Below, piece after piece: positions 4,703 through 18,751 of a stretch of DNA of 64,000 bases. The position numbers and the translations under genes are program-made. Where the stretch lies: NCBI RefSeq assembly GCF_018424605.1, contig NZ_QTKT01000008.1:124001-188000 (forward strand), given 5' to 3'. Position 1 is the stretch's first letter. Every line of letters starts with the position of its first letter. The stretch is from Marinobacter lipolyticus (GTDB taxonomy: Bacteria > Pseudomonadota > Gammaproteobacteria > Pseudomonadales > Oleiphilaceae). The notes beneath the pieces were generated by a model, which worked only from the letters and a program-made list of their open reading frames with translations, did not search any database and was not told the origin of the DNA.

Positions 4703-4750
4703 TAGCCCCGGCTATCGACAGGCATGACATGATCTGGTGATCGTGACGAA

Positions 4751-4777
4751 AAACCCCGCTGCGGCGGGGTTTTTTTG
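4751..4777 (+). terminator. Rho-independent terminator of glnA
   Basis: AAACCCCGC (4751-4759) pairs with GCGGGGTTT (4764-4772) around TGCG, followed by a run of T to 4776. It lies about 50 bases after the glnA stop. Confidence 0.93.
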
Positions 4778-4839
4778 TGCGCTGCGACACACGCCCTGTT
4801 GCCCTTAACGATATGTAACTCTTTGATCCCCCAACAGCG

Positions 4840-4868
4840 TTGAAAACCCCCAGCCTGCCATTGATAAT
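4840..4868 (+). promoter_or_regulatory. Sigma-70 promoter of the DUF4124 gene
   Basis: TTGAAA (4840-4845), 17-bp spacer, GATAAT (4863-4868): a close match to consensus. The expected start is near 4875, 25 bases before the ATG at 4900. It would allow this gene, and possibly ntrBC by read-through, to be expressed independently of glnA. Confidence 0.75.
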
Positions 4869-4899
4869 CAGATCATTCCCTCCATGACAGGACAGTGGC

Positions 4900-5424
4900 A
4901 TGAACAAACGGTTTGGACTCTTTGCAGGCATCCTGCTTATCGGCGCCGCTCCGGCATTTGCGGAGGTTTATCGCAACGTGGATGCCCAGGGCAATGTCAC
5001 CTTTTCGGACGAACCCTCTGATGGGGCGGAAGAGGTAAAAGTAAAACCGGTGACCACCGTGACCCTACCGAAACCCGCTGACGTGCAGGAGCCCGAGCAA
5101 CTGCGCCAGCAGGTCGAGGAAGAAGGTGCGGTTTACCAGAGCGTGCGCATTCTGTCGCCGAGCGATGACCAAGCCTTTCACAGCGGCAGCGGCGATGTCG
5201 CCTTCCGCGTCACCAGCCAACCCGCGCTGCAGGAAGGACACCGCTACGAAGTTACCCTCGATGGCCAACCGGTTGGCCAGACCGCCTCGGATACCGTAAC
5301 CGTTCGCAATGTGTTCCGTGGCACCCATGAGGCCCGGGTCAGCATCATTGACCAGAACGGCGTTCAGGTGAAATCCGGCGACCAGATCACATTCACCATC
5401 CACCGCCCCTCCGTAAACAACTGA
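4900..5424 (+). CDS. DUF4124-domain exported protein
   Basis: Function unknown. Seen: 174 aa with a signal peptide (residues 1-21, ending PAFA before EVYRN). This is followed by the DUF4124 pattern YRNVDAQGNVTFSDEP, a short domain common at the start of envelope proteins in gammaproteobacteria. A Pro/Glu-rich linker and a C-terminal beta-rich region of about 85 residues (near VYQSVRILSPSDDQAF) resemble an Ig-like fold. There are no cysteines or membrane segment in the mature part, so a soluble periplasmic protein is likely. The start ATG follows AGGAC. Its position between glnA and ntrB recalls similar small genes there in pseudomonads, but a nitrogen role is not shown. Confidence 0.85.
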   Translation: MNKRFGLFAGILLIGAAPAFAEVYRNVDAQGNVTFSDEPSDGAEEVKVKPVTTVTLPKPADVQEPEQLRQQVEEEGAVYQSVRILSPSDDQAFHSGSGDVAFRVTSQPALQEGHRYEVTLDGQPVGQTASDTVTVRNVFRGTHEARVSIIDQNGVQVKSGDQITFTIHRPSVNN

Positions 5425-5439
5425 CCTACCCTTCCCTAT

Positions 5440-5462
5440 GCGCGCACCATTTTAGTGCGCGC
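5440..5462 (+). promoter_or_regulatory. NtrC-like palindrome upstream of ntrB
   Basis: GCGCGCAC (5440-5447) and GTGCGCGC (5455-5462) form a perfect 8-bp inverted repeat. The 17-bp core CGCACC-ATTTT-AGTGCG (5443-5459) shares GCACCATTTT with the distal glnA operator. It may allow NtrC to control its own operon. It lies about 200 bases before ntrB and just after the DUF4124 stop codon. Confidence 0.55.
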
Positions 5463-5495
5463 GCACCACAAAAAAGCCATACTCTGATCTTCAAC

Positions 5496-5514
5496 GGGGC
5501 GTTTTATACGCCCC
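5496..5514 (+). repeat. Hairpin after the DUF4124 gene, no T-run
   Basis: GGGGCG (5496-5501) pairs with CGCCCC (5509-5514) around TTTTATA. It is followed by ACCACC, not by T residues, so it is not a standard terminator. It may protect the 3' end or be an operator. Confidence 0.35.
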
Positions 5515-5576
5515 ACCACCGGCAACCCCGGACACAACGCACTAGGTCATTGCGTCAGCAGGTCTGTATCAGGCTT

Positions 5577-5595
5577 GTGCCCGTTAAACGGGCAC
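5577..5595 (+). repeat. Perfect 8-bp palindrome before ntrB
   Basis: GTGCCCGT (5577-5584) and ACGGGCAC (5588-5595) flank TAA, about 60 bases before the ntrB start. In RNA it would be a strong hairpin. In DNA its TGCCCG-N5-CGGGCA spacing equals that of NtrC sites, but the bases differ from that consensus. Confidence 0.4.
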
Positions 5596-5656
5596 GCAAT
5601 CTGAGCCGATTCTCCAGATTGGTTCACTTCTTGCAGAAACCGGAAGATAAGCAGCA

Positions 5657-6775
5657 ATGTCCATCGATCGAGACAGCAGCATGGCCTTCACAGTCACCAA
5701 AACCTCTGCCTACAAAAGCATACTGGACAGCCTGACCACCGCCATCCTGGTTCTGGAGGACGGCCTGCGCATACAGTACCTGAACCCCGCTGCTGAGAGC
5801 CTGTTCGAGACCAGCATTACCCGCAGTCACGGCCTCCCCATCAACGACATCCTGGTGGATTCCGAAGACGCCCTCACCACCCTGCTGTCCGCGGCGGAGA
5901 ATGGGCAGTCCTACACGCGGCGCGAGGCCGAGTTTATCCTCACCAGCGGAACGCGGCTCATGGTGGACTACTCGGTTTCGCCCATCAGCCTGGACCCGAC
6001 CGAACTGCTGATTGAAATTCAGCCGCGGGATCGGCTGCTGCGAATCAGTCGTGAGGAAGACATTATTTCCCAGCAGGAAACCACCCGCATCCTGGTGCGG
6101 GGCATGGCCCACGAAATCAAGAACCCGCTGGGCGGGATCCGCGGCGCCGCGCAGTTACTGGACCGGGAGCTGAACGACGAAGGTCAGCGCGAGTACACCC
6201 AGGTCATCATCGACGAAGCAGACCGGCTGCGCTCTCTGGTGGACAGAATGCTGGGGCCCAACAAGGCGCTGAAACTGGCGCCCACCAACATTCACGAGGT
6301 GCTGGAACGGGTCAAAACCCTGCTGGAAGCCGAAAGTCGCGGGCGCCTGACCTTCCGCCGCGATTACGATCCCAGCCTGCCGGAGTTAGAGGGCGACAAG
6401 GAGCAGCTGATCCAGTCCTTTCTCAACATCGCCCGTAACGCCATGGAAGCGGCCTTCGAGAATCAGGCCGAGCACGCCCGCGACGAGATGCCCACCATTA
6501 CCTTCCGCACCCGCGCGCTCAGGCAGTTCACCATTGGCCACAAGCGACACAGGCTGGTGTGCCGGGTGGACGTAATCGATAACGGCCCGGGTATTCCCCC
6601 GGAGCTGTTACAGAACATTTTCTACCCGATGATCAGCGGCCGTGCCAGCGGCACCGGCCTGGGTCTCTCCATTACCCAGAGCATCATCGGGCAACACCAC
6701 GGGCTGGTTGAGTGCGAAAGCGAGCCCGGAAAAACCGACTTCATCATCTTCCTGCCCCTGGAGGACAATCAATGA
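5657..6775 (+). CDS. ntrB: Nitrogen regulation sensor histidine kinase/phosphatase NtrB
   Basis: Phosphorylates or dephosphorylates NtrC according to nitrogen status, normally through PII proteins. Seen: 372 aa, no membrane segments. A PAS domain spans about residues 15-85 (LTTAILVLEDGLRIQYLNPA). The HisKA motif GMAHEIKNPLGG carries phospho-acceptor His152. The HATPase boxes VIDNGPGIP and GTGLGLSI lie near the C-terminus. The start at 5657 is preceded by GAAGATAA; a second ATG eight codons in is possible. The stop overlaps the ntrC start by four bases (ATGA), so the two are translationally coupled. An NtrC-like palindrome upstream suggests self-control. Confidence 0.96.
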   Translation: MSIDRDSSMAFTVTKTSAYKSILDSLTTAILVLEDGLRIQYLNPAAESLFETSITRSHGLPINDILVDSEDALTTLLSAAENGQSYTRREAEFILTSGTRLMVDYSVSPISLDPTELLIEIQPRDRLLRISREEDIISQQETTRILVRGMAHEIKNPLGGIRGAAQLLDRELNDEGQREYTQVIIDEADRLRSLVDRMLGPNKALKLAPTNIHEVLERVKTLLEAESRGRLTFRRDYDPSLPELEGDKEQLIQSFLNIARNAMEAAFENQAEHARDEMPTITFRTRALRQFTIGHKRHRLVCRVDVIDNGPGIPPELLQNIFYPMISGRASGTGLGLSITQSIIGQHHGLVECESEPGKTDFIIFLPLEDNQ

Positions 6776-8199
6776 GCCAACCGGCAAACGTCTGGATCAT
6801 AGACGACGATCGCAGTATTCGCTGGGTGCTGGAGCGCGCCCTTAACCAGGCCGGTATGCAGCCCCGGGTCTTCGAGAGCGGCGAAAGCATCATGCTAAGG
6901 CTGGAACACGAACAGCCCGACGCCATCATCAGTGACATCCGCATGCCCGGAGTCGACGGCATTACCCTGCTTTCCCAGATTGTGGATGTTCATCCCGATC
7001 TGCCGGTCATCATCATGACCGCGCATTCGGACCTGGAAAGTGCCGTCACCAGTTACCAGACCGGCGCCTTCGAGTACCTGCCCAAACCATTCGATGTGGA
7101 CGATGCGGTGGCCCTGGTCAAGCGCGCGGTGGCTCACAGCCACGAACGTCGGGCGACGGCCGAACCACAGGCGGAAAGCAGCCAGCGCAACACTGAAATC
7201 ATCGGCGAAGCGCCGGCGATGCAGGAGGTATTCCGGGCCATCGGGCGATTGTCCCACTCCAACATCACCGTACTGATCAACGGCGAGAGCGGCACCGGCA
7301 AGGAACTGGTGGCCCAGGCCCTGCACAACCATAGCCCGCGGGCGAATCACCCCTTCATTGCTCTGAACATGGCCGCTATCCCCAAGGACCTGATTGAGTC
7401 GGAGCTGTTCGGCCACGAAAAAGGCGCCTTCACCGGTGCCGGTGCCGCCCGCCAGGGCCGCTTCGAACAGGCCAACGGCGGCACCCTGTTTCTCGATGAA
7501 ATCGGCGACATGCCGGCCGATACCCAGACCCGGCTATTGAGGGTACTGGCCGATGGCGAGTTCTACCGGGTCGGCGGCACCACCCCGATCAAGGTGGACG
7601 TACGGATCATTGCCGCCACGCACCAGGATCTGGAAAAGCTGGTGCAGGCCGGCTCGTTCCGGGAAGACCTGTTTCACCGGCTGAACGTCATCCGGGTGCA
7701 CCTGCCCAAGCTGGCCGAACGCCGGGAAGACATTCCCCGGCTGATGCAGCATTTCCTAAAACGCGCGGCCAAAGAACTGGCGGTGGAGCCGAAGATTCTG
7801 CGCGCCGAAGCGGAAGAATACCTCACCACCATGCCCTGGCCGGGTAACGTCCGCCAGCTCGAAAACACCTGTCGCTGGCTCACGGTGATGGCCAGCGGGC
7901 GGGAGATTCACATTGATGACCTGCCCCCGGAACTGCTGCACCAGGCGGAAACACCGGCCACCGGCCAGACCTGGCAGGAAGGCTTGCGCAACTGGGCCGA
8001 GCAGGAACTCAAGCGTGGTCGGAAGGGCATTCTGGATACCGCCGTGCCGGAGTTCGAGAAGATCATGATTGAATCTGCTCTCAAGCACACCGGCGGTCGC
8101 CGGCGGGATGCTTCAATTCTGCTGGGCTGGGGGCGCAATACCCTGACGCGGAAAATCAATGAGCTGGGGATGGATCATCCGGAGGGTGACGAGGACTGA
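6772..8199 (+). CDS. ntrC: Nitrogen regulator NtrC, sigma-54 activator
   Basis: Response regulator that, when phosphorylated, drives open-complex formation at sigma-54 promoters such as that of glnA. Seen: 475 aa. The receiver domain has acidic pocket Asp11-13 and phospho-acceptor Asp55 (ISDIRMPG). The AAA+ domain has Walker A GESGTGKE at 171-178, the sigma-54 contact loop GAFTGA at 218-223 and Walker [10 protein letters not shown] Fis-type helix-turn-helix ([19 protein letters not shown]) ends the protein. An in-frame ATG 20 codons earlier lies inside ntrB and is rejected; the chosen ATG follows GGAGG and overlaps the ntrB stop. The gene converges on mshQ with four bases between stops and no terminator. 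Confidence 0.98.
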
Positions 8200-8203
8200 C
8201 GGA

Positions 8204-11200
8204 TCAGGGGACTTCGCGCCAGTAGATGACCCGATCATGGCCGCGGTAGACGCCGAAGGTGGCGGTTGCGGAGGGAAACTCCAGCGCCCCGTCACTATCC
8301 CGGTCGTCCTGAAGCCACTGCGACACCTGCCAGACCAGAGTGTCGGTTCCCTGACTGCCGTTCGGCGCCAGTCGCAGCGGGCCCGCGGTACCGGCGCTGA
8401 TCGTGCCGGAACTCGCCGCCAGCGTGTGGTGATTACCGGTGTTGTCGATTGCGGCTGTGGACCACCCACTGCATGAATCATCCAGGTTCACCTCGAAATC
8501 CCCTGCCCGGAAAAATTCCATCCGGAACGGCATCTGCAACTCACCCACTGTTTCCGGCCCGTATACATTCTCCATGACCAGGCGACCATATCGAACATCA
8601 AATGCTGCACCCGGCGTGAAACGGTAGGGCGCAGACTCCGCCTGAACCCCGTCGGTGTCTCCAACACTCTCCAGCGCAAACCGCAGCTCCGGCACAAATG
8701 GATCGATTCGGGTAGCCGGCGTTTTTATGTATGAGAAGGCGTCGTCCGTACTGTAGGTAAACTGCATCAGGCCCGGAGCAATAGCCGCCAGAGTGCCGCC
8801 CTGCTGGTCCACCGCGACCGCCATCGGCCCATTACCCGCATCAAAAGCCGTTTCGTCCCCGGCTGGTACGGAACGGTTGATCCCCGTAACAGCCAGGCGC
8901 TGAAAACCGTCAGCGGTGTAGTTCCGCGTGCGAAGCCCCTGAACCGACAAGGGCTCGATCAGAGCCGAAGGTGGCATCAACCATTCAAAAGGCTGCCCGG
9001 TGTAAGTAAAGCTTCCCGGCTCACAGACTGGCGCAAACTCTCCTGGATCGACATTGATGCGGAAACGATCCGGGTAGAAACGTCCAATCGGGGCGCTCCT
9101 TCCCTTCGGCAGGTTACGGCCCAAATATGCACCGGCGGGTGGTTCCGTCACGAAACGGAACACCCCCACTTCTGACTGCTGCGCACTGACCACACTGGCG
9201 GCGTCGGACGCTCGTTCGTGGCTGTAGCGTGCCGGGGTCACTGTTCCGGTCTCGCCGCCGACGGGCGCCGCTAATTCCACCTGCAGCGGAATGTCCGCCA
9301 GGCGGAAATTGGGCGTGCCCGGGTTCCCCGCGCAAAAATCCGTGTCGGCGTCACTCTGCCAGCCCGCTGCCGTGATCGACAGATCAAACGCCTCCCCGGC
9401 GCGCACGAACGCCGGGCAAGAGGCATCGCCGGCCGCGCAGTTACCTGCCGAGGCCACACAGAATCCGGCAGGAATGCTCACAAATTCGTCCGCGCCGGGC
9501 ATCACCAGCCCGGCGTCCTCTGTCGCTTCGGAACCGACATATCGCGCGGTTACCTGAACAAGTCCGGCGTCCGGATAGGTCACCTCCATTTCTGCAATGC
9601 CATCCTCGCCGAACGCCAGTTCAAGCCCTGTAGGCGCCGAAGCGCCATTACCGATGGCCTGGCCATTGACTGAGACCGGCCGACTCACTGCACGACCGGC
9701 CGGACCGGGATCGACATAATCGGACCAGAATTCGACGGTCTTGGTCTGGTGCTCGAACGCGGGCACGCACTGCTGGGTGACATCGTCCTGCCGCACCGCC
9801 TGAACCCGTACAGGTCCGGAAGGCCGATGGGAAATCAGCTCGGGAATGGTAAACGCCAGCCCGGATTCAAAAAACGGCAGTTCGCAATTGCCGGACGAAA
9901 GCGAGCCACCCACCTGGCACAACGTGACCGCCTGGGGACGCGTGGAAGGGGTCGATCCGATCACGTCCAGCGTTACCTCACCGGGTGTGGTGTTTTGCAG
10001 GGTGGCCTCACCAAAACCGTTGGTCAGCGTTACTCTGTTGCCACCTTGCCAGCCATTAGCCGGTGCCAGGGTTGCCTCTACCGGATCGGTGAACAGCTCC
10101 GAACAGTCGGCATTGGCACAGGCGCGAACCTGCAGCGTCTCAGGCTGACAGGTCAGCGCAACACCGTCATGGATGATCTCAAAATGATCGACCTGTTCAC
10201 CAACCGGATTAATCCTGAGCGCGCAAAGCCCGACGTTATCCAGTTCATGCACGTTGGTTGAGCCCCCCGTGGAACCGGTCAGGGAGAGCAGAAACGTTTC
10301 TGGTACTGCGGCCTGATCGGGGTCGGTCAGAACGTCAACCGGGCCGATCAGGGTTTGCAGACCAGCTCCGGTATCCCGCCGGACGGTGACGATTGCCTGA
10401 TTTGCCGTGCGGGAATCAATGGTGATTTCGTACCGGTGAGGATTATTTGCCCCGGTTCCGTCCACCTCGGGCGTTAATCCGCCACTGTTGGCCAGGAATT
10501 TGTAGCCCTCAAGACCACTTCCGGACCCGCGTAAAGTGACCGATTGCGGCGTAAAACCGGCACCACCCACCCGGCCTTCGGAGGCGTTCGCAAAGTTGCC
10601 GTATTCGTCCAGCCCGATGCCAAGCCAGCCCCCCGAGAAACCCGGCCCTTCGACCCCGCTTCCCCGGCGCTGCGCGTATCCGAGCGATCCACCATAACTG
10701 CCGGGCTGGGGCGTAAAGTTTGCATCGGAGAGCACGAACGCCACCCCGTCAGCGCCGGTTCCGCCGTAGGCGTAGTAATCAAAGGTGAGAACGACCAGAT
10801 TGTCCGCCCCCGGAATCTCCGCCTGCAAGGTAGCGGCCGTCGCCTGATTGGGTACCGCCTCGGTCATCCTCAGGCGGCCGTCATCGATACCCGGTGTGAA
10901 GCTGCCACTGGAGCGCGAGGTGACCCACAACTCCGGATCCAGCACGTTGGCGGAGAAATCGTCCTGGGTTTCGCAGTTCAGAGCCGTCGATTCATCGACT
11001 ACCTCGATGACAATCTCGTCCGAGCTCCAGAATTGGTACTGCGCACAAAAACCGAAAACCGTATCCGCGCAGAAGAAAGCTTCAAATTCCACGGTGTAAA
11101 CACCTGGATCATCGAACGTGGTTGACCACTCGGGCACCCGGCTGCAGGGCGATTGGTTACTACCCTGCTGTTCACGAACCGCCCCATCAACGCGCCACTG

Positions 11201-11908
11201 GTCGACCCAATCCGCATTGAAAAAGGAAGTCTGTGGCGAAGGGCATCCAGAAGCGACCACGGAAAAATCAATTGTGCTCCCCACTTCAACAATCACCGGA
11301 CCCTGGCTTTGCCCATTGGCAGACAGAACGATGTCGGCGTCGCACAGGCCTTCCAGCAACTCCTGATTTACGTCGCCCTCCGAAAACGACACGTCACGAT
11401 TGCCCTCGCTGATCGGGCCGGCCGCGGCAAGCGCGCCATTCACGAAAACATTGTTGCCGACCGATATGGCGCCGCCGGCGTAAATCGATCCATTGATCAC
11501 CACCTGATTGCCCGGGCTGTTGTTACCTCCGGCGATCGTGACGTTGCCGCGGACAACAATAAGTAGATTTCGTGAACTCTCGCCAGCGTTCAGCAACGTA
11601 CCCCGCCCAATGGTCAAATTGCCGTTCACAAAAATGACGAGCTCTGCTCCCGGCGATAATTCCAGCTCGTAGTTGCCGATGGAGGAGCCGGAGACATAGC
11701 GCTCTCCGCCGGATTGAGGGGTTCCGGACGGCGGCCAGCCTCCCTCCGCCCGGGGAACCCCGGAAAGATCCAGCCCTTCACTCCCCAGATTGCCGTTGAC
11801 GCCATCGGCGTCCCCAAATACCTCGGTACACTGGGCGGCCAGCACATGGGCGCTGCCAAATCCCAGAATAAGGGCCACCAAGATAATCAGCGGGCGAACA
11901 ATCCTCAT
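8204..11908 (-). CDS. mshQ: MSHA pilus locus surface protein MshQ, lectin-like
   Basis: Large protein ending the MSHA locus, likely exposed on or near the pilus. Seen: 1234 aa. A signal peptide (residues 1-24, ending HVLA) leads into a Gly/Asn-rich region with repeated GN-x-x-I/V turns (about 70-190) that suggests a beta-helix. A PKD-like stretch follows near 190-300. Residues about 310-565 resemble an L-type (legume-like) lectin, with DFSAN at its start, DGVAFVLSD, and GWLGIGLDEYGNF in its core. The C-terminal half matches the DUF6701 type known from MshQ proteins; Cys pairs occur throughout. The start overlaps the mshP stop (ATGA). A tip adhesin is inferred; the ligand is unknown. Confidence 0.88.
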   Translation of the reverse strand: MRIVRPLIILVALILGFGSAHVLAAQCTEVFGDADGVNGNLGSEGLDLSGVPRAEGGWPPSGTPQSGGERYVSGSSIGNYELELSPGAELVIFVNGNLTIGRGTLLNAGESSRNLLIVVRGNVTIAGGNNSPGNQVVINGSIYAGGAISVGNNVFVNGALAAAGPISEGNRDVSFSEGDVNQELLEGLCDADIVLSANGQSQGPVIVEVGSTIDFSVVASGCPSPQTSFFNADWVDQWRVDGAVREQQGSNQSPCSRVPEWSTTFDDPGVYTVEFEAFFCADTVFGFCAQYQFWSSDEIVIEVVDESTALNCETQDDFSANVLDPELWVTSRSSGSFTPGIDDGRLRMTEAVPNQATAATLQAEIPGADNLVVLTFDYYAYGGTGADGVAFVLSDANFTPQPGSYGGSLGYAQRRGSGVEGPGFSGGWLGIGLDEYGNFANASEGRVGGAGFTPQSVTLRGSGSGLEGYKFLANSGGLTPEVDGTGANNPHRYEITIDSRTANQAIVTVRRDTGAGLQTLIGPVDVLTDPDQAAVPETFLLSLTGSTGGSTNVHELDNVGLCALRINPVGEQVDHFEIIHDGVALTCQPETLQVRACANADCSELFTDPVEATLAPANGWQGGNRVTLTNGFGEATLQNTTPGEVTLDVIGSTPSTRPQAVTLCQVGGSLSSGNCELPFFESGLAFTIPELISHRPSGPVRVQAVRQDDVTQQCVPAFEHQTKTVEFWSDYVDPGPAGRAVSRPVSVNGQAIGNGASAPTGLELAFGEDGIAEMEVTYPDAGLVQVTARYVGSEATEDAGLVMPGADEFVSIPAGFCVASAGNCAAGDASCPAFVRAGEAFDLSITAAGWQSDADTDFCAGNPGTPNFRLADIPLQVELAAPVGGETGTVTPARYSHERASDAASVVSAQQSEVGVFRFVTEPPAGAYLGRNLPKGRSAPIGRFYPDRFRINVDPGEFAPVCEPGSFTYTGQPFEWLMPPSALIEPLSVQGLRTRNYTADGFQRLAVTGINRSVPAGDETAFDAGNGPMAVAVDQQGGTLAAIAPGLMQFTYSTDDAFSYIKTPATRIDPFVPELRFALESVGDTDGVQAESAPYRFTPGAAFDVRYGRLVMENVYGPETVGELQMPFRMEFFRAGDFEVNLDDSCSGWSTAAIDNTGNHHTLAASSGTISAGTAGPLRLAPNGSQGTDTLVWQVSQWLQDDRDSDGALEFPSATATFGVYRGHDRVIYWREVP

Positions 11909-12318
11909 CGCACCCTCACCTCTACAACCCGTTCGGCTGCATCCACTCCGCCTCCGCAGCGACCGCGGCTATTAATGGTGTACAGCGTATCGCCACCGCT
12001 CCCGGCAACCGCCGAAGCATCTTCCGCGGCACAGCGAATGCGCGCGCTGCAACTACTCAGCGCGTCCTCTGTGAAATTGAGCGTCCAGTCAGCCGGGCAC
12101 GCCCGCCCCTGATGGAGCACATCGGCCACCGCCACCTGCGCACCGCTTTCTGCCGCAAAAAACGCGCGCTGAGACTGGATCTGCAAACTGACCGCTTCAC
12201 CGGAACCCTGCTGAATCTGCGCCATGCTGAAAACCACCAGCGCGAGTACGGTGACCACGAAAATGGCTACCGGCAGACCGGCACCCTGTTGATTGATTAA
12301 TGACTGATCAGGGTACAT
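11905..12318 (-). CDS. mshP: MSHA minor pilin MshP
   Basis: Minor pilin-like protein with PilX/GspK character. Seen: 137 aa from the chosen ATG. The short leader ends QQG before AGLPVAIF, and a hydrophobic helix VAIFVVTVLALVVFSM follows. Position 5 after the cleavage Gly is Val, not the Glu found in ordinary pilins. Four cysteines follow in the globular part, enough for two disulfides. A start 14 codons upstream (GTG, inside mshO) has no ribosome site; the chosen one has AGGAGG 12 bases ahead, slightly far. The gene overlaps mshO by 11 bases and mshQ by four. A location at the pilus tip next to MshQ is inferred. Confidence 0.85.
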   Translation of the reverse strand: MYPDQSLINQQGAGLPVAIFVVTVLALVVFSMAQIQQGSGEAVSLQIQSQRAFFAAESGAQVAVADVLHQGRACPADWTLNFTEDALSSCSARIRCAAEDASAVAGSGGDTLYTINSRGRCGGGVDAAERVVEVRVR

Positions 12319-13078
12319 TGCGGATCTGTACCTCCTGAATGGTGGTGGTAGTTTCATCACTGCCGGTATCGTAGTCCTGCAAGGTCAGGGTGAATTCCAC
12401 CACCGCGGCGCGCAGTAGCGACGGCGGTGTAACGCGGAAGTTCACCGGGCCAGCCAGATTGGCGGACATCACTTCACGTCGCCCCGCTGAGGGGGGCGCC
12501 AGCTGGGTTTCACTGCGACCATAGCCAGTGTGCCGATACAGGTACCGCCCGCTTTGGCAGATACTGACCGGCTCACCTACTGCGAACAGCCTTCGCTCCG
12601 GCGATTGCTGCGAGAAGCGGTGCGCGGCGGTGAGCGTAAGGGTAGTATCCGCAACGGTGTCGACCGACGTGGAAACGGGACCGGGATTATTGTTGCCATA
12701 CAACGCTGAAACGCCCGTGCCGTAGCCGAAGATCACGGCGCGGCTGCCGGCCGGCGGTGGGTCGCTGAAAGGCACAACATCAACCCTGTCAAAACCCGGC
12801 CCGCGAGTGCGACGGCTGTAATTGGTCGCCGCCAGCAATGGTAACCACTCGATACACTGACCGTTGACACGGACGGATAAAGGAAAAGCTTCTCGCAGGG
12901 ACCGGGATAGCTGCTCACCGATGACCACGGCCTGCAATGCCCGTTGCTGCCGGGCGCTCAGATCCAGAGCGCCCCGGGTGGACAGGCTGACAAACTGTAC
13001 GGACACGGTGGCAACAATGGCCAGCAATACAATGACCATAACCAGTTCGATCAGCGTGAACCCCCGAGAGCGACGCAT
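12308..13078 (-). CDS. mshO: MSHA minor pilin MshO
   Basis: Type IV pilin-like protein, GspJ-like in size and position. Seen: 256 aa. The prepilin leader MRRSRG is followed by FTLIELVMVIVLLA with Glu at mature position 5. A long globular domain with Cys and Asn-rich loops follows. The reading frame extends upstream of the chosen ATG, but that part lies within mshD. The ATG shares one base with the mshD stop (TGATG), which favours this start. It is expected to be processed by a PilD-type peptidase encoded outside the window and to join the minor-pilin initiation complex. Confidence 0.9.
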   Translation of the reverse strand: MRRSRGFTLIELVMVIVLLAIVATVSVQFVSLSTRGALDLSARQQRALQAVVIGEQLSRSLREAFPLSVRVNGQCIEWLPLLAATNYSRRTRGPGFDRVDVVPFSDPPPAGSRAVIFGYGTGVSALYGNNNPGPVSTSVDTVADTTLTLTAAHRFSQQSPERRLFAVGEPVSICQSGRYLYRHTGYGRSETQLAPPSAGRREVMSANLAGPVNFRVTPPSLLRAAVVEFTLTLQDYDTGSDETTTTIQEVQIRNVP

Positions 13079-13575
13079 CAGAAATTCACCCGGTAGAACG
13101 TGAACACGAACCGGCCATCTGACGGATCGCGAACGGTGATGTCGACGCGTTTCGCGTCCGGTGCGGGCAGCCCCACCTCGGCACCGGCGCACGTCACCTC
13201 CACGGAAACTCTGAAGCTGCCGTAGGCCGCACTGTTCAGGTCTGACCCGTCGGCTTTTTGCGGCACCTCATCATCGATGGCGTTGTAGTCATCAACATCG
13301 TCATAGGCAGACCGATCCGGTTCTTCGGTATTTACTGAGCATCCGCTTACTCGCGGTGTGCCACCGATTGGGGTGCTGTCATCGTAACGGCGGGACTGAA
13401 TTTCATCTGCGTAAAGCTGCGCCAGGGCAACGGCGCGAGTCTGGTTCAGAGGATCGGCGCTGCGGCCTGTCAACAAAGAGAACGCTCCGACTACTCCGGC
13501 AATGGCCACACTGATGATCACAATGGTCATCACCAGCTCCACCAGCGTTGCACCGCGGGCGTTCATTTGCCTCAT
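13078..13575 (-). CDS. mshD: MSHA minor pilin MshD
   Basis: GspI/PilV-like minor pilin. Seen: 165 aa. The leader MRQMNARG is followed by ATLVELVMTIVIISVAIAG. Residue +1 is Ala and Glu is at +5, with a long transmembrane helix. Cys residues at the middle (SGCSVN) and later (EVTCAG) could form a disulfide. The start overlaps the mshC stop by ATGA; an internal ATG three codons later is the only alternative. It sits in the order mshC-mshD-mshO-mshP-mshQ, the same as in vibrios and Shewanella. Confidence 0.9.
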   Translation of the reverse strand: MRQMNARGATLVELVMTIVIISVAIAGVVGAFSLLTGRSADPLNQTRAVALAQLYADEIQSRRYDDSTPIGGTPRVSGCSVNTEEPDRSAYDDVDDYNAIDDEVPQKADGSDLNSAAYGSFRVSVEVTCAGAEVGLPAPDAKRVDITVRDPSDGRFVFTFYRVNF

Positions 13576-14030
13576 AGACAGGCACCCCGGTACACCGCGC
13601 CGAGGGAGCTCAGGCAGGTGGAAAAACTGCTCTGGCCACTGAACACGAACAGAGTGTCGGCACCGTTTGTTGGCACGCCTTTGCTATTGAAATTGATGAT
13701 CAGTGGCAGGCCGCCACCAACCGAAAGACTGGTGCCCTCACGGGGCAGTTCGAACGTGCGGGCAACAGGCGTTCCGGCGCCGACCACAAACCGGAAGTCG
13801 TCGCCCGCCTGTTCCACACGGAGAGAGCCACCCGCGTTGCCCGCCAGCGCTGCCTGCTGGGCAAGCAGCGTGGCGGCGGCAAGTTGCTGGGTGGCCAGCA
13901 GGGGAGAGAAGGCCGAACGGCTGGCAAACAGGCCAATGCCCAGAACGGAAAGAGCTCCGATCAGGACGATGACCATGACCAGCTCAACCAGGGTAAACCC
14001 CGATGACCTCGGGGCGTTTTTCATTGTCAT
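13572..14030 (-). CDS. mshC: MSHA minor pilin MshC
   Basis: GspH-like minor pilin. Seen: 152 aa. The leader MTMKNAPRSSG precedes FTLVELVMVIVLIGALS, with Glu at mature position 5. A beta-rich globular domain (SLRVEQAGDDFRFVVG) ends in a Cys pair near the C-terminus (FSTCLSSLG, YRGACL), as in many pilins. GGGAGG five bases before the ATG supports this start. A second ATG two codons later is also possible. A 97-bp spacer with a hairpin separates it from mshA, so its expression may be lower than that of the major pilin. Confidence 0.9.
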   Translation of the reverse strand: MTMKNAPRSSGFTLVELVMVIVLIGALSVLGIGLFASRSAFSPLLATQQLAAATLLAQQAALAGNAGGSLRVEQAGDDFRFVVGAGTPVARTFELPREGTSLSVGGGLPLIINFNSKGVPTNGADTLFVFSGQSSFSTCLSSLGAVYRGACL

Positions 14031-14127: not shown

Positions 14128-14586
14128 TTAACACTCACCATCTGTTTTGTCTGTCGTTACAGTGAGGGTAGCTGCGGTGTCCGCATCAGCGGCAGCTGCG
14201 TAGGTAGCCACGCAGCTTCCCACAGTGATAGTGCCTGCATCTTCATCGTAAGCAAGGCCGTCCCCATCGAACTGCGCAGCATCATCAAGAGCATCGATCG
14301 CGGGATAACCAAATACGACGTCGATGTCTCCGCCGTCCAGTGACACAGTCTCGGTCGCATCGTCCGTTACTCCATTAGCGAGTGCAGCAGACCTGACGAT
14401 GCTGATCGCAGACCGAGCAGAACCGAGAGCTCCATCGAATACCGCCGCTCTGGCACTTCCGCCCAAGTCTGCAAACCGTGGCAAAGCGAACGCCGCCAGA
14501 ATGCCCAAGATCACAATCACCATAACCAGTTCGATCAGGGTGAAACCTTTTTCTTTTCGTGCTGCCATTGAAGTCATTACGTTCAT
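14128..14586 (-). CDS. mshA: MSHA major pilin MshA
   Basis: Likely main pilus subunit. Seen: 152 aa. A 14-residue leader (MNVMTSMAARKEKG) is followed by FTLIELVMVIVILGILAAFA, with Glu at mature position 5. The helix continues through LPRFADLGGSARAA, typical of MshA. The globular domain is acidic and Ala/Asp-rich, with two cysteines (VGSCVATY and the final DGEC) positioned for the C-terminal disulfide loop. A GTG four codons upstream was rejected because GGAG sits six bases before the chosen ATG. The gene is less GC-rich in codon use than its neighbours, as often seen for abundant or diversifying pilins. Assignment as major rather than second pilin rests on order. Confidence 0.85.
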   Translation of the reverse strand: MNVMTSMAARKEKGFTLIELVMVIVILGILAAFALPRFADLGGSARAAVFDGALGSARSAISIVRSAALANGVTDDATETVSLDGGDIDVVFGYPAIDALDDAAQFDGDGLAYDEDAGTITVGSCVATYAAAADADTAATLTVTTDKTDGEC

Positions 14587-14621
14587 GGTGTTCTCCACTT
14601 TTTTGGTTGCTGCTAATTGAA

Positions 14622-15131
14622 TCAGTTAATCGTGGTGACGATGTCACCGTTATCCGTGTCGTAAACGATGGTGCTGCCCTGCCCATCGGCGAGGTATTCG
14701 TATTCGCAGTCGTCCCCGGACAGGCCGACCAGATATTCGGTGTCTGCGGCGTTGGTGGTCGCTGCAACCGGCGCGTTTGACTGCAACAAGCCGTTCCATA
14801 CCTGCAGGCAACGGTTGGCGTTCGGGGCACCGGTGGTGCCGTTGGTGGACGTCGCCCAGCCTTCATCGTTGACTGCAACGTTGTCGTTACCAAAGCCTTC
14901 CACCGCGGCCACCGCGCCTGTAGTGCCGTTGGTCACCCACTGCGCCTTGACCAGTGCTACACCCGCACTCAGCGCACCGGCGGTCGCCTGGATACTGGAC
15001 TGATGCGCCTGCTCCGAAAGCTGCGCAAAACGCGGCAACGCGAACGCGGCCAGAATGGCCAGGATGGCGATCACCACTACCAATTCGATCAGGGTGAACC
15101 CTGCCTGTTTCTTCTTGCTTGTGAACTGCAT
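14622..15131 (-). CDS. mshB: MSHA pilin MshB
   Basis: Type IV pilin close to MshA in its N-terminal half. Seen: 169 aa. The leader MQFTSKKKQAG precedes FTLIELVVVIAILAILAAFA, with Glu at mature position 5. The conserved LPRFAQLSEQAH region follows, then a globular domain with NRCLQVWNG and GDDCEYEY giving one Cys pair. The ATG follows GAGG and lies six bases after the mshF stop. In the known MSHA order mshB precedes mshA. If abundance were measured and this protein dominated, the A and B names should be exchanged. Confidence 0.85.
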   Translation of the reverse strand: MQFTSKKKQAGFTLIELVVVIAILAILAAFALPRFAQLSEQAHQSSIQATAGALSAGVALVKAQWVTNGTTGAVAAVEGFGNDNVAVNDEGWATSTNGTTGAPNANRCLQVWNGLLQSNAPVAATTNAADTEYLVGLSGDDCEYEYLADGQGSTIVYDTDNGDIVTTIN

Positions 15132-15137
15132 CGTTGA

Positions 15138-15752
15138 TTAGTCCTCTTTCCCGGTTTCTGATTCGTCATGCCAGCGTTTCGCGTCCTGCCGTTGCGCTGA
15201 TTCTGGTTGTAACGCTACCGGCTCGAGTTTGAGTCCGGTCAGTCGCTCTTCATGCTCCCGCTGTCCATTGTTGTTGCGGTCTGCAAAATCCGTTGTCACT
15301 TCCCAGGCAAGAGGCTGGGCCACTTCGGGTGGCCGTCCTCTAAGGGTTATCGGCCGTGCCGGGTTATAGATGAACCAGCCCTCCTGCCTGTGCGCTGTCT
15401 TCCTTTCGGTTCGGCTCTGGAAGCACCAGTACCCCGGTGGTGGCAGCGCCCTCCTGCATTGGCCGCGGTAGCGCCCCCACTGATGCTCTAACAGCTCGAA
15501 GGGATTCAGTCCTTCGTGCTGCAGCAGGCTCTGATCCCTCGCCAGCATCACCTCCGCGCCCTTAATCACCAGCGCGGATTGCAGCTGGCTTAGCACCAGA
15601 GTGGCTGAGACCTGCTCGACCCGGGACGCTTCGCGGTCCACCACATCCAGCACAAACCACCACAACAGAAACAACACCGCCAACGCCACCAACATCCGGA
15701 GCCGGCGGCCATTTTTCAGGGCATTGGCGTCCGATAGCCGGGCCGTTGGCAC
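15138..15752 (-). CDS. mshF: MSHA biogenesis protein MshF
   Basis: Small inner-membrane protein of the MSHA locus with no defined biochemical role. Seen: 204 aa. One transmembrane helix (about residues 19-38, MLVALAVLFLLWWFVLDVV) is followed by a periplasmic part with a Cys pair (GQCRRALPPPGYWCF). A charged tail rich in Glu and Arg follows. It starts with GTG immediately after the mshG stop (TAG-GTG), with a G-rich ribosome site inside mshG. Identification depends on position between mshG and mshB and on size. Sequence conservation in this family is low. Confidence 0.75.
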   Translation of the reverse strand: MPTARLSDANALKNGRRLRMLVALAVLFLLWWFVLDVVDREASRVEQVSATLVLSQLQSALVIKGAEVMLARDQSLLQHEGLNPFELLEHQWGRYRGQCRRALPPPGYWCFQSRTERKTAHRQEGWFIYNPARPITLRGRPPEVAQPLAWEVTTDFADRNNNGQREHEERLTGLKLEPVALQPESAQRQDAKRWHDESETGKED

Positions 15753-16982
15753 CTAGCCCCGCCCCATAGCCGCCGCGCCCAGATCCCAGATGGGCAGAAA
15801 TACGCCCAGTGCCAGAATCAGCACCAGGATACCCATGGCCACAATGAGAATGGGCTCGATGGACTCCGCCAGCCGCTTCAGGCCGTAATCCACGTCTTCA
15901 TCGTAAAAATCGGCGACGTTGTTGAGCATGTCGTCCACCGACCCGGTTTCTTCGCCCACTGCAATCATCTGCAGGATCAGCGGGGTAAACATTCCGCTTT
16001 GCCGTGCCGTTCGCAGCAGGCTCTCGCCGCGCTCAATCCCGGCGCGCATGTCCTTGATGTGCAGCGAAATCCACGCATTGTCCGTGGCGTCCGCCACTAC
16101 CGTCAATGCGTGGGTCACCGGCATGCCCGCGGCCAGCATGCTGGCAAAATTGCGGGCAAACCGGCTCAGGGTGATCAGTTCCAGCAGTGGCCCGATAATC
16201 GGTATTCTCAGCTTGTATCGGTCCCAGGTAATGCGGCCCTGTTCGGTCTGTTTCCACTGGCGGAGCAGCAGCCCTGACGCGGCAACTCCGAACAACAGCA
16301 CGTACCAGTAACCCAGCAGAAAGTTGGAGGTGCCCACCAGTACCTGTGTGAGAAACGGCAGGTCAGCCCCCAGCTTGTTAAACACCGAAGCGAACTTCGG
16401 AATCACCAGAAAGTTGACCACCATCAGTGCTGCCAGCAGTGCTACCACCACGAATGTGGGGTAACGCATGGCCTGCTTGAGACGCCGCTTGGTATCACGC
16501 TCCAGCTCGAGGATCTCCGACAGCCGCTTGAAGGCGTCGTCCAGCATGCCGGTGTTCTCGCCAACGTGAATCATTGCGATGAACAGGTCGGAAAACACGC
16601 CGGGATGGGCCTGCATGGCCGTGGCCATGGTGGTACCGCCTTCCAGCCGTGAGGTCACATCTTCCAGCACCTCCGCCAGCACCGGTGACCGGCTGGTTTC
16701 AGCCAGCCCGCGCATGGTGCGGATCAGCGGTATGCCGGCTTTGGTGAGGGCGTGCATCTGGCGGCAGAAGACGATCAGCTCGTCCAGGGTGACCTTCTTG
16801 CGAAACAGCGGTACGCGGTTCAGGCGATCGCTCAGGGTAACGGTCTGCTCGTGCTCGCGGATCGACAAGGGTGTGATACCGCGACGCAGCAGCTCCGAGG
16901 CGGCCACATCGGCATTCGGTGCAGCCAGCAATCCCTGCTGCACAATGCCACGGCTGTCTTTACCCCGATAACTGAACTGCAT
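15753..16982 (-). CDS. mshG: MSHA inner-membrane platform protein MshG (PilC/GspF family)
   Basis: Platform on which the assembly ATPase acts to extrude pilins. Seen: 409 aa, usual for the family. It has two repeated T2SSF domains (about 65-190 and 270-390), each with the FCRQMHALTKAGIPL-type and FARNFASMLAAGMPV-type helix and the GE(N/T)TG turn. Hydrophobic segments lie near 165-190, 215-240 and 375-400. The N-terminus MQFSYRGKDSRG is typical of this family. The start shares one base with the mshE stop (TAATG), tying ATPase and platform translation together. No key element appears missing. Confidence 0.95.
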   Translation of the reverse strand: MQFSYRGKDSRGIVQQGLLAAPNADVAASELLRRGITPLSIREHEQTVTLSDRLNRVPLFRKKVTLDELIVFCRQMHALTKAGIPLIRTMRGLAETSRSPVLAEVLEDVTSRLEGGTTMATAMQAHPGVFSDLFIAMIHVGENTGMLDDAFKRLSEILELERDTKRRLKQAMRYPTFVVVALLAALMVVNFLVIPKFASVFNKLGADLPFLTQVLVGTSNFLLGYWYVLLFGVAASGLLLRQWKQTEQGRITWDRYKLRIPIIGPLLELITLSRFARNFASMLAAGMPVTHALTVVADATDNAWISLHIKDMRAGIERGESLLRTARQSGMFTPLILQMIAVGEETGSVDDMLNNVADFYDEDVDYGLKRLAESIEPILIVAMGILVLILALGVFLPIWDLGAAAMGRG

Positions 16983-18751
16983 TACGGCACGTCCTCACTG
17001 AACGCTTCAGCGGCGCGGTGATGCGATTCTTCCAGTGATACGTCGCCCTCGGACGTGGCCGCGACGCGGGCCACTTCTTCCAGCGTGGTCACGCCCTGCA
17101 AGGCGTAATCCATGGCGCAGGCTCCCAGTGGGCGGTAATAGCGGCTTTGCCGCGCAGCGTGGGTAAACGCCGACACGTCGCGGCGCCGCAGCGCATCCAG
17201 CATCGTCTCGTTCATCTCCAGCATTTCATAGACGCCAACCCGCCCCTTGTAGCCGGTGTTGCTGCACTGGTAACAACCACGACCGCGGACAAACCCCACC
17301 TCCAGATCCAGCGGATCCAAATTGAATCCGTCCAGCCAGACCTGCTGCTGGTTTGTGGGCTCACAGGGTTCGCGGCAGTTGTCGCACACGCGGCGCACCA
17401 GTCTCTGGGCCACCACCCCCAGCAGCGAACTGGCCACCAGGAACGGCTCGGCGCCCATGTCGATCAGCCGCATGGCGCTGCTGATGGAGTCGTTGGTGTG
17501 CAGGGTGGACAACACCAGGTGGCCGGTCATGGCGGCACGCAGGCCAATTTCCACGGTCTCCCGGTCGCGCATTTCACCTACCAGAATCACGTCCGGATCC
17601 TGGCGCAACGCGGACCTGAGCACGTTGGCAAACTCGAGACCGATTTTGGGATTGACCTGCACCTGAGTGATACGGGGCAGACGGTATTCCACCGGATCTT
17701 CCGCCGTGATGATCTTGACTTCCGGCCGATTCAGCTCCGTCAGCGCACCGTAGAGCGTGGTGGTCTTGCCGCTGCCCGTCGGCCCGGTGACTAGGATCAT
17801 GCCATGGGGCTTCTTGATCATGCGGCGGAATCGCCCGAGCAGCTCCGCGGGCATGCCGGTGCCATCCAGATTGAGCATGCCCTGGCTCTGATCCAGCAAA
17901 CGCATGACCACGGATTCGCCATACTGCACCGGCATGGTGGACACCCGCACATCAATGCTGCGCCCCTTGACCCGCACGTTGAAACGGCCGTCCTGGGGCA
18001 TGCGCTTTTCCGAGATGTTCAGCCCGGCCATCAGTTTCAAACGCAGCACCAGTGCGGAGTTGACCCGCTTTTCTTTCATCACCTGCTCTTGCAGTACACC
18101 ATCCACCCGCTGGCGAATGCGCACCACCGTCTCATCCGGCTCGATGTGAATGTCCGAGCTGCGGGCCTGTACCGCGTCTTCAAAGAGCGTTTGTAGCAGT
18201 TTGACCACCGGCGCTTCCGCGCTCTCGGATTCGGCGGACAGGTTGGCCAGATCGAAGGCGTCGTCACCGAGTTCGTCTTCCAGCTCTTCCGCCAGCGAGG
18301 CGATTTCGTCGGTGCGGCGATACACCAGGTCCAGGGTACCGAGCAGTTCGCTCTCCCTTACCACCGCCTGCTTGATGGGTTGCTTCAGCACCCGCACCAG
18401 TTCGTCGTAGGCAAAGATGTCCAGCGGGTCCGCCATGCCCACCAGCAGCTCGTCGCCCTGCTTTGCCAGAATGATGCTGCGGAACCGGCGGGCCATGGCC
18501 TCCGGCAGTTTTTTCACCAGTTCGTTGTTGAACTGAAAATGGCGCAGCTGGACAAACGGCACATCCAGCTGGCGCGAGAGGAAGTTCAGCAGGTTGTCCT
18601 CGTCGACATAGCCCATGTCGATGAGGGTACGCCCGAGCTTGCGGCCGGTATCTTTCTGCTCACGCAGGGCCGTCATCAGCTGTTGCTCGGTAATCACGTC
18701 GTTCTGGACCAACAGGTCCCCGATACGGATTTTTTTCTTCGGCTCAGTCAT
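16982..18751 (-). CDS. mshE: MSHA assembly ATPase MshE with c-di-GMP-binding N-domain
   Basis: PilB/GspE-type hexameric ATPase that powers pilus extension. Seen: 589 aa. Two MshEN motifs occur at the N-terminus: Arg9-Gln32 (RIGDLLVQNDVITEQQL and on) and Lys38-Gln61 (KLGRTLIDMGYVDEDNL and on). In this family they bind c-di-GMP. The first has Asp18 where Gly is usual. Walker A GPTGSGKT is at 323-330, and Walker B VILVGEMRD and the His box LVLSTLHTND follow. A tetracysteine zinc motif (CDNC and later CYQC) completes the T2SSE domain. The mshN stop is three bases upstream. Control of pilus output by c-di-GMP is inferred from the motif. Confidence 0.96.
   Translation of the reverse strand: MTEPKKKIRIGDLLVQNDVITEQQLMTALREQKDTGRKLGRTLIDMGYVDEDNLLNFLSRQLDVPFVQLRHFQFNNELVKKLPEAMARRFRSIILAKQGDELLVGMADPLDIFAYDELVRVLKQPIKQAVVRESELLGTLDLVYRRTDEIASLAEELEDELGDDAFDLANLSAESESAEAPVVKLLQTLFEDAVQARSSDIHIEPDETVVRIRQRVDGVLQEQVMKEKRVNSALVLRLKLMAGLNISEKRMPQDGRFNVRVKGRSIDVRVSTMPVQYGESVVMRLLDQSQGMLNLDGTGMPAELLGRFRRMIKKPHGMILVTGPTGSGKTTTLYGALTELNRPEVKIITAEDPVEYRLPRITQVQVNPKIGLEFANVLRSALRQDPDVILVGEMRDRETVEIGLRAAMTGHLVLSTLHTNDSISSAMRLIDMGAEPFLVASSLLGVVAQRLVRRVCDNCREPCEPTNQQQVWLDGFNLDPLDLEVGFVRGRGCYQCSNTGYKGRVGVYEMLEMNETMLDALRRRDVSAFTHAARQSRYYRPLGACAMDYALQGVTTLEEVARVAATSEGDVSLEESHHRAAEAFSEDVP

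What the first reader, a model, noticed from the sequence alone, without database searches (positions are those of the whole stretch)
8204..11908. MshQ carries an L-type lectin-like region: candidate pilus adhesin
Residues about 310-565 resemble a legume-type lectin, flanked by a possible beta-helix region and the DUF6701 half. As the last gene of the locus, after the minor pilins, it could be the part that recognises sugars on surfaces or hosts.
Basis: partly seen in the sequence, partly recalled or inferred. Interest (0 to 1): 0.55.

Follow-up and report, generated by a model that had tools for sequence, protein, structure and literature searches.

The report
Sugar-binding head on MSHA pilus protein
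The last gene of a type IV (MSHA) pilus operon in a marine bacterium encodes a large secreted protein whose middle domain is predicted with high confidence to have the fold of plant seed lectins with the sugar- and calcium-binding residues kept, which makes it a testable candidate for the part of the pilus that recognises sugars.

Summary
The gene (minus strand, 8204-11908, 1234 aa) is mshQ, last gene of an MSHA operon. Residues 308-565 are predicted to fold as an L-type lectin: AlphaFold2 pLDDT 95; best solved match pea lectin, Z 23.1. Pfam's model stays below its cut-off, so Pfam-based annotation would miss it. Residues matching the calcium and mannose contacts of ERGIC-53 and Lactococcus YwfG are kept in 69 of 69 aligned sequences, window included (D387, D434, aromatic 436, N438, G548), and in 16 of 16 not found by motif patterns. 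The domain precedes DUF6701 by 91-140 residues in 79 of 81 ORFs from several gammaproteobacterial genera. Elsewhere DUF6701 carries other heads: LamG in 29 of 59 N-termini scanned; the L-type head occurs in 7 of 82 DUF6701 genomes of a class-wide draw. I read DUF6701 as a dock on the minor-pilin tip and the N-terminal part as an exchangeable head, an arrangement like PilY1's without its domain. MshQ was already called a putative adhesin. Binding, ligand and tip location are inferred, not shown.

The parts
8204..11908 (-). mshQ, 1234 aa, last gene of the MSHA operon
   Evidence: ORF; DUF6701 above Pfam cut-off; only DUF6701 match in its genome
11834..11908 (-). residues 1-25, Sec-type signal peptide, no prepilin motif
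   Evidence: read by eye from the translation; no signal-peptide program run
11405..11707 (-). residues about 68-168, possible beta-helix (choice-of-anchor A / DUF7305-like)
   Evidence: TIGR04215 sub-threshold, 19.8 bits against 29; many short strands in the model of residues 35-1234; absent or replaced in several relatives
10994..11341 (-). residues about 190-305, separate beta domain between the N-terminal region and the lectin
   Evidence: strands; in L072, L127, L065 the protein begins with this part
10214..10987 (-). residues 308-565, L-type lectin domain
   Evidence: PF18483 sub-threshold; AlphaFold2 pLDDT 95.2; pea lectin Foldseek E 3.2e-10, Z 23.1
10748..10750 (-). D387, loop A aspartate, proposed counterpart of Asp121 of ERGIC-53 and Asp117 of YwfG
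   Evidence: 69 of 69; 16 of 16 not found by motif patterns
10595..10609 (-). D434-E-Y436-G-N438, calcium-site motif D-x-aromatic-x-N; G432 just before it stands where plant lectins have the manganese-site Glu (role of that Glu recalled)
   Evidence: D434 and N438 69 of 69, Tyr/Phe/Trp at 436 43/23/3, Gly/Ala at 432 58/11
10262..10270 (-). T547-G548-G549, loop D of the sugar site
   Evidence: T547 68, G548 69, G549 51 of 69; proposed counterpart of Gly251-Gly252 of ERGIC-53
9926..10213 (-). residues 566-661, spacer of near-fixed length between lectin and DUF6701
   Evidence: 91-140 residues, median 96, in 79 ORFs, measured with profiles of my own
8210..9925 (-). residues 662-1233, DUF6701, proposed pilus dock
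   Evidence: PF20419 E 7.5e-138
11905..12360 (-). mshP-like minor pilin, immediately upstream, PilX/GspK-like N-terminus without Glu5
   Evidence: sequence; NF037980 GspK sub-threshold E 0.013; no Pfam match; Glu5-less counterparts at the same place in relatives
12308..13078 (-). mshO-like minor pilin
   Evidence: N_methyl E 5e-8
13078..13575 (-). mshD-like minor pilin
   Evidence: N_methyl E 2.5e-4, just below cut-off
13572..14030 (-). mshC-like minor pilin
   Evidence: N_methyl E 4.4e-4, just below cut-off; TIGR02532 above cut-off
14128..14598 (-). mshA-like pilin
   Evidence: N_methyl E 4.7e-9
14622..15131 (-). mshB-like pilin
   Evidence: N_methyl E 9.1e-11
15753..18751 (-). mshG platform protein (15753-16982) and mshE ATPase (16982-18751)
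   Evidence: T2SSF E 6.6e-61 for mshG; mshE named by eye, not searched

Best explanation
MshQ is the tip adhesin of the MSHA type IV pilus, built like PilY1 but from unrelated parts. Shown by sequence and prediction: a C-terminal DUF6701 region of about 570 residues, a spacer of about 95 residues, and before it an L-type lectin domain with the residues for calcium and sugar contact conserved; in other species DUF6701 carries other heads, often of concanavalin-like (LamG) or other lectin type. Inferred: the protein is exported by Sec, docks through DUF6701 on the minor-pilin tip complex (its neighbour gene is a PilX/GspK-like minor pilin lacking Glu5), is lifted through the secretin as the pilus extends, and presents the lectin head outermost. 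The head binds a mannoside/glucoside-type or related glycan with a bound calcium ion, on algae, particles, hosts or biofilm polymers; retraction then pulls the cell in. Changing the head changes the target without changing the pilus machine.
For: Fold: pLDDT 95.2, legume lectins and ERGIC-53 as best PDB matches. Site: D387, D434, aromatic 436, N438, G548, H554 in 69 of 69 rows (window and 68 others), E444 in 67 of 69; the same seven in 10 of 10 other same-genus and 6 of 6 class-wide MshQ lectins. They match the contacts reported for ERGIC-53 (Asp121, Asn156, Phe154, Gly251-252; PMC3912170 passages) and YwfG (Asp117, Asp152-x-Tyr154-x-Asn156; PMC9815576 abstract and passages). Of three remote homologues in genomes without DUF6701, two (L176, L177) have lost D434 and N438 and one (L178) keeps them, so the fold can exist without the site. 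Architecture: lectin and DUF6701 in one ORF in 79 of 81. Operon: two or more prepilin-like ORFs upstream on the same strand in 71 of 73 loci with at least 3 kb upstream, none on the other strand in 73. Neighbour gene: prepilin-like segment with a free fifth residue found in 72 of 75 loci; six of these are not prepilin-like to my eye, and of the other 66 only one (L085, 251 bases away) has Glu5, against Glu in 287 of 381 segments further upstream; PilX and GspK tip subunits lack Glu5 (PMC7541494 passage). Head exchange. Literature: MshQ of V. cholerae is called the putative MSHA adhesin (PMC7096442 passages); mshQ exchange changed squid-host competition in V. fischeri (PMC4094467 passages).
Against: No binding data. 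The fourth calcium ligand is not identified (E444 is a candidate; YwfG uses Asp166, ten residues after its Asn). Loop D varies after G548 (G549 51, S550 50 of 69), so specificity may differ among species and cannot be predicted. The 80 named loci were found with the patterns [IV]GLDE[FY]GN and [YF]GGSLGYAQ, which inflates conservation of D434-N438 and G406-G410 there. Residue equivalences rest on motifs and published contacts, not on superposed coordinates. Tip location is by analogy. Loss of mshQ also lowers surface MSHA (PMC7096442), which fits an assembly role. The L-type head is not general: 7 of 82 DUF6701 genomes of the class draw, own genome included; 12 of 69 in the Vibrio draw. The window's own mshP-like protein has no Pfam match.
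Confidence: 0.7

Rival explanations
1. MshQ is chiefly an assembly (priming) factor; the lectin domain folds as a lectin but serves as a spacer or plug and binds no sugar that matters.
For: Loss of mshQ lowers surface MSHA in V. cholerae (PMC7096442 passages); PilY1 and minor pilins prime pilus assembly in Myxococcus (PMC7541494 passages).
Against: Site residues, not just core residues, are conserved, while two of three homologues outside MshQ have lost part of them. Priming and binding are not exclusive.
Confidence: 0.15
2. The lectin binds the bacterium's own or a neighbour's polysaccharide (matrix, capsule, O-antigen), so it serves cell-cell and biofilm cohesion, not recognition of foreign surfaces.
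For: MSHA pili are required for biofilm formation in V. cholerae (abstract text of PMC7096442); heads differ between species of one genus, as surface polysaccharides do (recalled).
Against: Nothing here separates self from foreign ligands; V. fischeri mshQ exchange points to a host effect (PMC4094467).
Confidence: 0.25
3. The resemblance is a generic beta-sandwich (LamG/ConA-like) without lectin character.
For: The Pfam match is below its cut-off; many beta-sandwich folds look alike.
Against: Z 23.1 over 214 residues with legume lectins filling the rows shown, and L-type site residues conserved. LamG heads of other MshQ proteins are recognised by a different model.
Confidence: 0.03

Closest known systems
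YwfG of Lactococcus lactis and SraP of Staphylococcus aureus (L-type lectin domains of Gram-positive surface adhesins)
   Same: L-type lectin domain used by a bacterial surface adhesin; D-x-Y-x-N calcium motif and sugar-site Asp in YwfG (PMC9815576); both appear in the structure search (SraP 4m00, YwfG 7yl4-7yl6)
   Different: YwfG is wall-anchored (abstract) and neither is described there as part of a pilus; here the domain is joined to DUF6701 in a type IV pilus operon
PilY1/PilC (type IVa pilus tip protein)
   Same: type I signal peptide, poorly conserved N-terminal region, conserved C-terminal domain, partner of a PilX minor pilin that lacks Glu5 (PMC7541494 passages)
   Different: No PF05567 or vWA match in MshQ at E <= 1; the C-terminal part is DUF6701
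MshQ of Vibrio, Shewanella, Aeromonas MSHA systems
   Same: Same family and operon place; MshQ listed among MSHA components of unknown function (PMC9815625 passages) and as putative adhesin (PMC7096442)
   Different: Only part of them carry this lectin head
ERGIC-53 and plant legume lectins
   Same: Fold; sugar-site Asp, Asn and Gly loop
   Different: Position of the plant manganese-site Glu (role recalled) is Gly/Ala in 69 of 69

Membership tests
L-type lectin fold superfamily | legume-lectin jelly-roll fold over the whole domain | tested here: met
   predicted model: pLDDT 95.2; Foldseek E 3.2e-10; Z 23.1, rmsd 2.9, 214 aligned
L-type lectin fold superfamily | loop A Asp, D-x-aromatic-x-N calcium motif, Gly-rich loop D | tested here: met
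   equivalence from motifs, published contacts and a weak profile alignment to P. angolensis lectin (E 0.83), not from superposed coordinates
L-type lectin fold superfamily | calcium and carbohydrate binding | not testable with these tools
   needs protein
Pfam PF18483 Lectin_L-type_dom | score above the curated cut-off (78.3 bits) | tested here: not met
   23.1 bits in the window; 16.9-27.3 bits in L033, L034, L041, L086, L129; no match in L088, L110, L125, L137 at the thresholds used
plant legume lectin (two-metal type) | Glu of the transition-metal site two residues before the calcium-site Asp (recalled) | tested here: not met
   G432; Gly 58, Ala 11, Glu 0 of 69
MshQ (DUF6701) | PF20419 above cut-off | tested here: met
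   461.6 bits against 27
MshQ (DUF6701) | gene at the end of an MSHA operon after minor pilins | tested here: met
   window; two or more prepilin-like ORFs upstream in 71 of 73 relatives
PilY1 | PF05567 C-terminal domain | tested here: not met
   no match with E <= 1
PilY1-like tip location | sits at the pilus tip on the minor pilins | not testable with these tools
   inferred from gene order and signal peptide only

The most novel reading that the evidence does not exclude
DUF6701 is the dock of a second class of type IV pilus tip adhesins, unrelated to PilY1, on which evolution exchanges glycan-binding heads (L-type lectin, LamG, H-type lectin, PA14/GLEYA and others) while the pilus machine stays; in the lineages that carry the L-type head, that head is the source of the mannose-sensitive binding for which the MSHA pilus was named.
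Probability: 0.35. Interest if true: 0.78.

Novelty: new variant of a known kind. Interest (0 to 1): 0.58.

Why it matters
MSHA pili have been described as mannose-binding or lectin-active (titles of Jonson 1991 and O'Boyle 2013, seen only in reference lists), yet a 2022 paper lists MshQ among MSHA components of unknown function (PMC9815625 passages). A domain with a defined site and a few testable residues turns 'which subunit binds the sugar' into a single-domain experiment. The head exchange would also give a sequence-based way to sort MSHA-bearing bacteria by likely target surface.

Tried and rejected
Pfam and NCBIfam alone: not enough, since the lectin matches are below cut-off. Sequence search of the PDB with the 69-row profile: one match below E 0.01, 7elv 'legume lectin', E 4.6e-4 for the whole chain, 0.0061 for the stretch; the other four at 0.75-0.97; kept as weak support. 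Fold of DUF6701: the model of residues 35-1234 (pLDDT 90.0, pTM 0.61) gave many low-TM matches to long chains such as alpha-2-macroglobulin besides the lectins, and the VIA rows shown cover only the lectin; no statement on the DUF6701 fold is made, as it was not searched alone (alignment A3 was made for it and not used). Conservation from the 80 named loci alone was rejected as proof because the scan patterns lie in the site; two searches were added. Lectin as a general MshQ feature: rejected (7 of 82; 12 of 69). Prediction of sugar specificity: rejected, since galactose- and mannose-binding legume lectins share these residues (recalled) and loop D varies. Glu5-less neighbour: my first pattern excluded Glu, so it was redone with a free position; PilX_N matched 3 of 9 tested, one above cut-off. 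The 59 N-termini are not an even draw: of 82 genomes I chose 60 loci, mostly by rank, left out 22 (fragments and others), and put in four lectin carriers of low rank, so 5 of 59 with the lectin profile overstates its share; Pfam counts there overlap and per-protein assignment was not printed. L058 (G006) shows only a 460-aa ORF, so its head was not seen. Papers: 'mshQ' with 'lectin' and 'msh' gave 3 papers; in two the word is in a cited title or 'lectinases', the third, on corals, was seen in the listing only. 'DUF6701' gave 0; 'MshQ' with 'PilY1' gave 1. Other listings were read as listings, with 12 papers opened at passages. The library lacks most subscription papers; Qin 2014 on Aeromonas MshQ was seen as a reference entry only.
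Full report
What was checked. The finding names 8204-11908. An ORF of 1234 aa lies there on the minus strand. It is the last gene of a block that reads, on that strand, MshE and MshG (MshE named by eye), a short gene without a family match, two pilins, and four minor-pilin-like genes, the nearest lacking Glu5; five of these six show the usual prepilin motif. ntrB/ntrC-like genes, named by eye, converge from the other side. The genome belongs to a genus whose other members include Marinobacter records: contigs of two genus-mates equal named Marinobacter contigs in length (G036 and L127, 4,616,532 bases; G019 and L067, 102,768). DUF6701 matches once in this genome.

The lectin domain. PF18483 matches residues 342-556 at E 7.7e-5 but far below its cut-off. 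Of 36 other same-genus genomes searched, 22 have DUF6701, and 10 of these 22 carry the same lectin region at 55-66% identity to the window. From 81 lectin ORFs in those loci, 68 below 85% identity to each other plus the window gave alignment A2. AlphaFold2 on A2 gave pLDDT 95.2 and pTM 0.92. In the PDB, legume lectins and ERGIC-53 fill the rows shown, with 221 chains at E <= 0.001, and VIA-align gives Z 23.1, rmsd 2.9, 214 residues, for the pea lectin-glucose complex, with the next 49 entries between 21.8 and 23.0. For a prediction I regard the fold as settled.

The site. In ERGIC-53 the mannose is held by Asp121, Asn156 and the backbone of Gly251, Gly252 and Leu253, with Phe154 in hydrophobic contact (PMC3912170, passages). 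In YwfG of Lactococcus the calcium is held by Asp152, Tyr154 O, Asn156 and Asp166, the mannose by Asp117, Asn156, Tyr154 and the Gly250-Phe252 loop (PMC9815576, abstract and passages). MshQ has D387, D434-E-Y436-G-N438, and T547-G548-G549. In A2, D387, D434, N438, G548 and H554 are present in 69 of 69, an aromatic at 436 in 69 of 69, E444 in 67 of 69, G549 in 51 of 69. The loci behind A2 were picked by patterns that cover D434-N438 or G406-G410, so I looked at sets not so picked: 10 same-genus proteins found through DUF6701 and 6 from a class-wide profile search all keep D387, D434, aromatic 436, N438, E444, G548 and H554. Three remote homologues in genomes without a DUF6701 match differ: L176 and L177 keep D387 but have lost D434 and N438, L178 keeps all three. 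Where plant lectins have the Glu of the manganese site (recalled), MshQ has Gly (58) or Ala (11); that it binds a single calcium as YwfG does is inference. No metal or sugar was modelled.

Architecture and heads. In the 80 named loci the lectin and DUF6701 share an ORF in 79 of 81 cases; the spacer is 91-140 residues (median 96), while the part before the lectin runs from 134 to 684 residues (75 ORFs with a start in view). The two exceptions are L104 (Aeromonas simiae, lectin and DUF6701 in overlapping ORFs) and L138 (DUF6701 not seen by my model). Two or more prepilin-like ORFs stand upstream on the same strand in 71 of 73 loci with 3 kb or more upstream, and none on the other strand in 73. 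The gene next to mshQ is of the PilX/GspK kind: with the fifth residue left free, a prepilin-like segment was found in 72 of 75 loci; six of these I judge not to be prepilins, and of the other 66 one has Glu5, against 287 of 381 segments in genes further upstream. Within the genus, the window-type N-terminus, a short one without the beta-helix-like part (L033, L036, L042) and LamG (L034, L041) all precede the lectin, and L041 joins a 55%-identical lectin to a DUF6701 only 37% identical. MshQ proteins without this lectin that I scanned carry LamG, PA14 with GLEYA, H-type lectin, Calx-beta, glycine-rich or DUF7305 regions; L046 showed nothing but DUF6701. In an even draw of 370 genomes of the class, 82 have DUF6701 and 13 match the lectin profile, 7 of these (own genome included) directly before DUF6701 on the same contig and strand; the other six are weaker and lie elsewhere. 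Of 59 N-terminal parts scanned, Pfam finds LamG in 29, pentraxin-like in 12, H-type lectin in 5, PKD in 5, PA14 in 4, GLEYA in 3, with overlaps. In the genus of Vibrio metoecus, 69 of 80 genomes have DUF6701 and 12 of 80 have this lectin, all 12 beside DUF6701 by coordinates. The lectin is therefore one of several heads. Named carriers include V. metoecus, V. mimicus, Aliivibrio, Aeromonas, Shewanella, Pseudomonas, Stutzerimonas, Rheinheimera and Desulfuromusa.

How it probably works. A PilX/GspK-like minor pilin followed by an exported large protein with a conserved C-terminal and variable N-terminal half repeats the PilX-PilY1 arrangement. For PilY1, the C-terminal domain interacts with the minor pilins and the authors place the variable N-terminal domain at the extreme tip (PMC7541494, passages); the 'same handle, other tool head' idea was proposed for the Acinetobacter tip adhesin ComC (PMC10374093, passages). 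MshQ has no PilY1 domain match. I infer that DUF6701 is the handle and the lectin or its substitutes the head. Published facts fit but do not prove it: mshQ is called the putative MSHA adhesin of V. cholerae, its loss reduces surface MSHA while retraction goes on (PMC7096442, passages); exchanging mshQ between squid symbionts changed competition, though other msh genes had effects too and colonisation was variable and low in one host (PMC4094467, passages); MshQ length differs between two Shewanella (PMC7439477, passages).

What is new. Adhesin status of MshQ and lectin activity of MSHA pili are known or proposed. I met no statement of a lectin domain in MshQ, of its site, or of head exchange on DUF6701 in the listings and passages seen; most listed papers were not opened, and subscription papers are largely outside that library. 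I class it as a new variant of a known kind. Binding, ligand and tip position remain inference.

Noticed in passing
L118 (Vibrio metoecus) 4765-8903: DUF6701 of mshQ is split over two ORFs; intact copies exist in other Vibrio genomes.
   Followed up: no
L123 (Shewanella corallii) 4552-12759: Two mshQ genes in tandem, each with the L-type lectin and DUF6701; neighbouring pairs of DUF6701 genes also appear in G273, G430, G441, G468 and G496.
   Followed up: no
G054:C87: Two DUF6701 matches lie in open frames of about 8,500 codons each, far larger than the other MshQ frames listed.
   Followed up: no
L176, L177 (open frames 4736 and 3747 aa): Giant open frames in genomes without DUF6701 carry a homologous lectin-like domain that has lost the calcium-site Asp and Asn.
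   Followed up: partly
A5 members: Eight heads also match Pfam Toxin_R_bind_N; I take this as a fold-level cross-match of LamG-type domains, not a toxin, but did not test it.
   Followed up: no
window 15138-15752: 204-aa protein with a membrane-anchor-like N-terminus between mshG and the pilins, with no Pfam or NCBIfam match at E <= 1 (mshF position).
   Followed up: no
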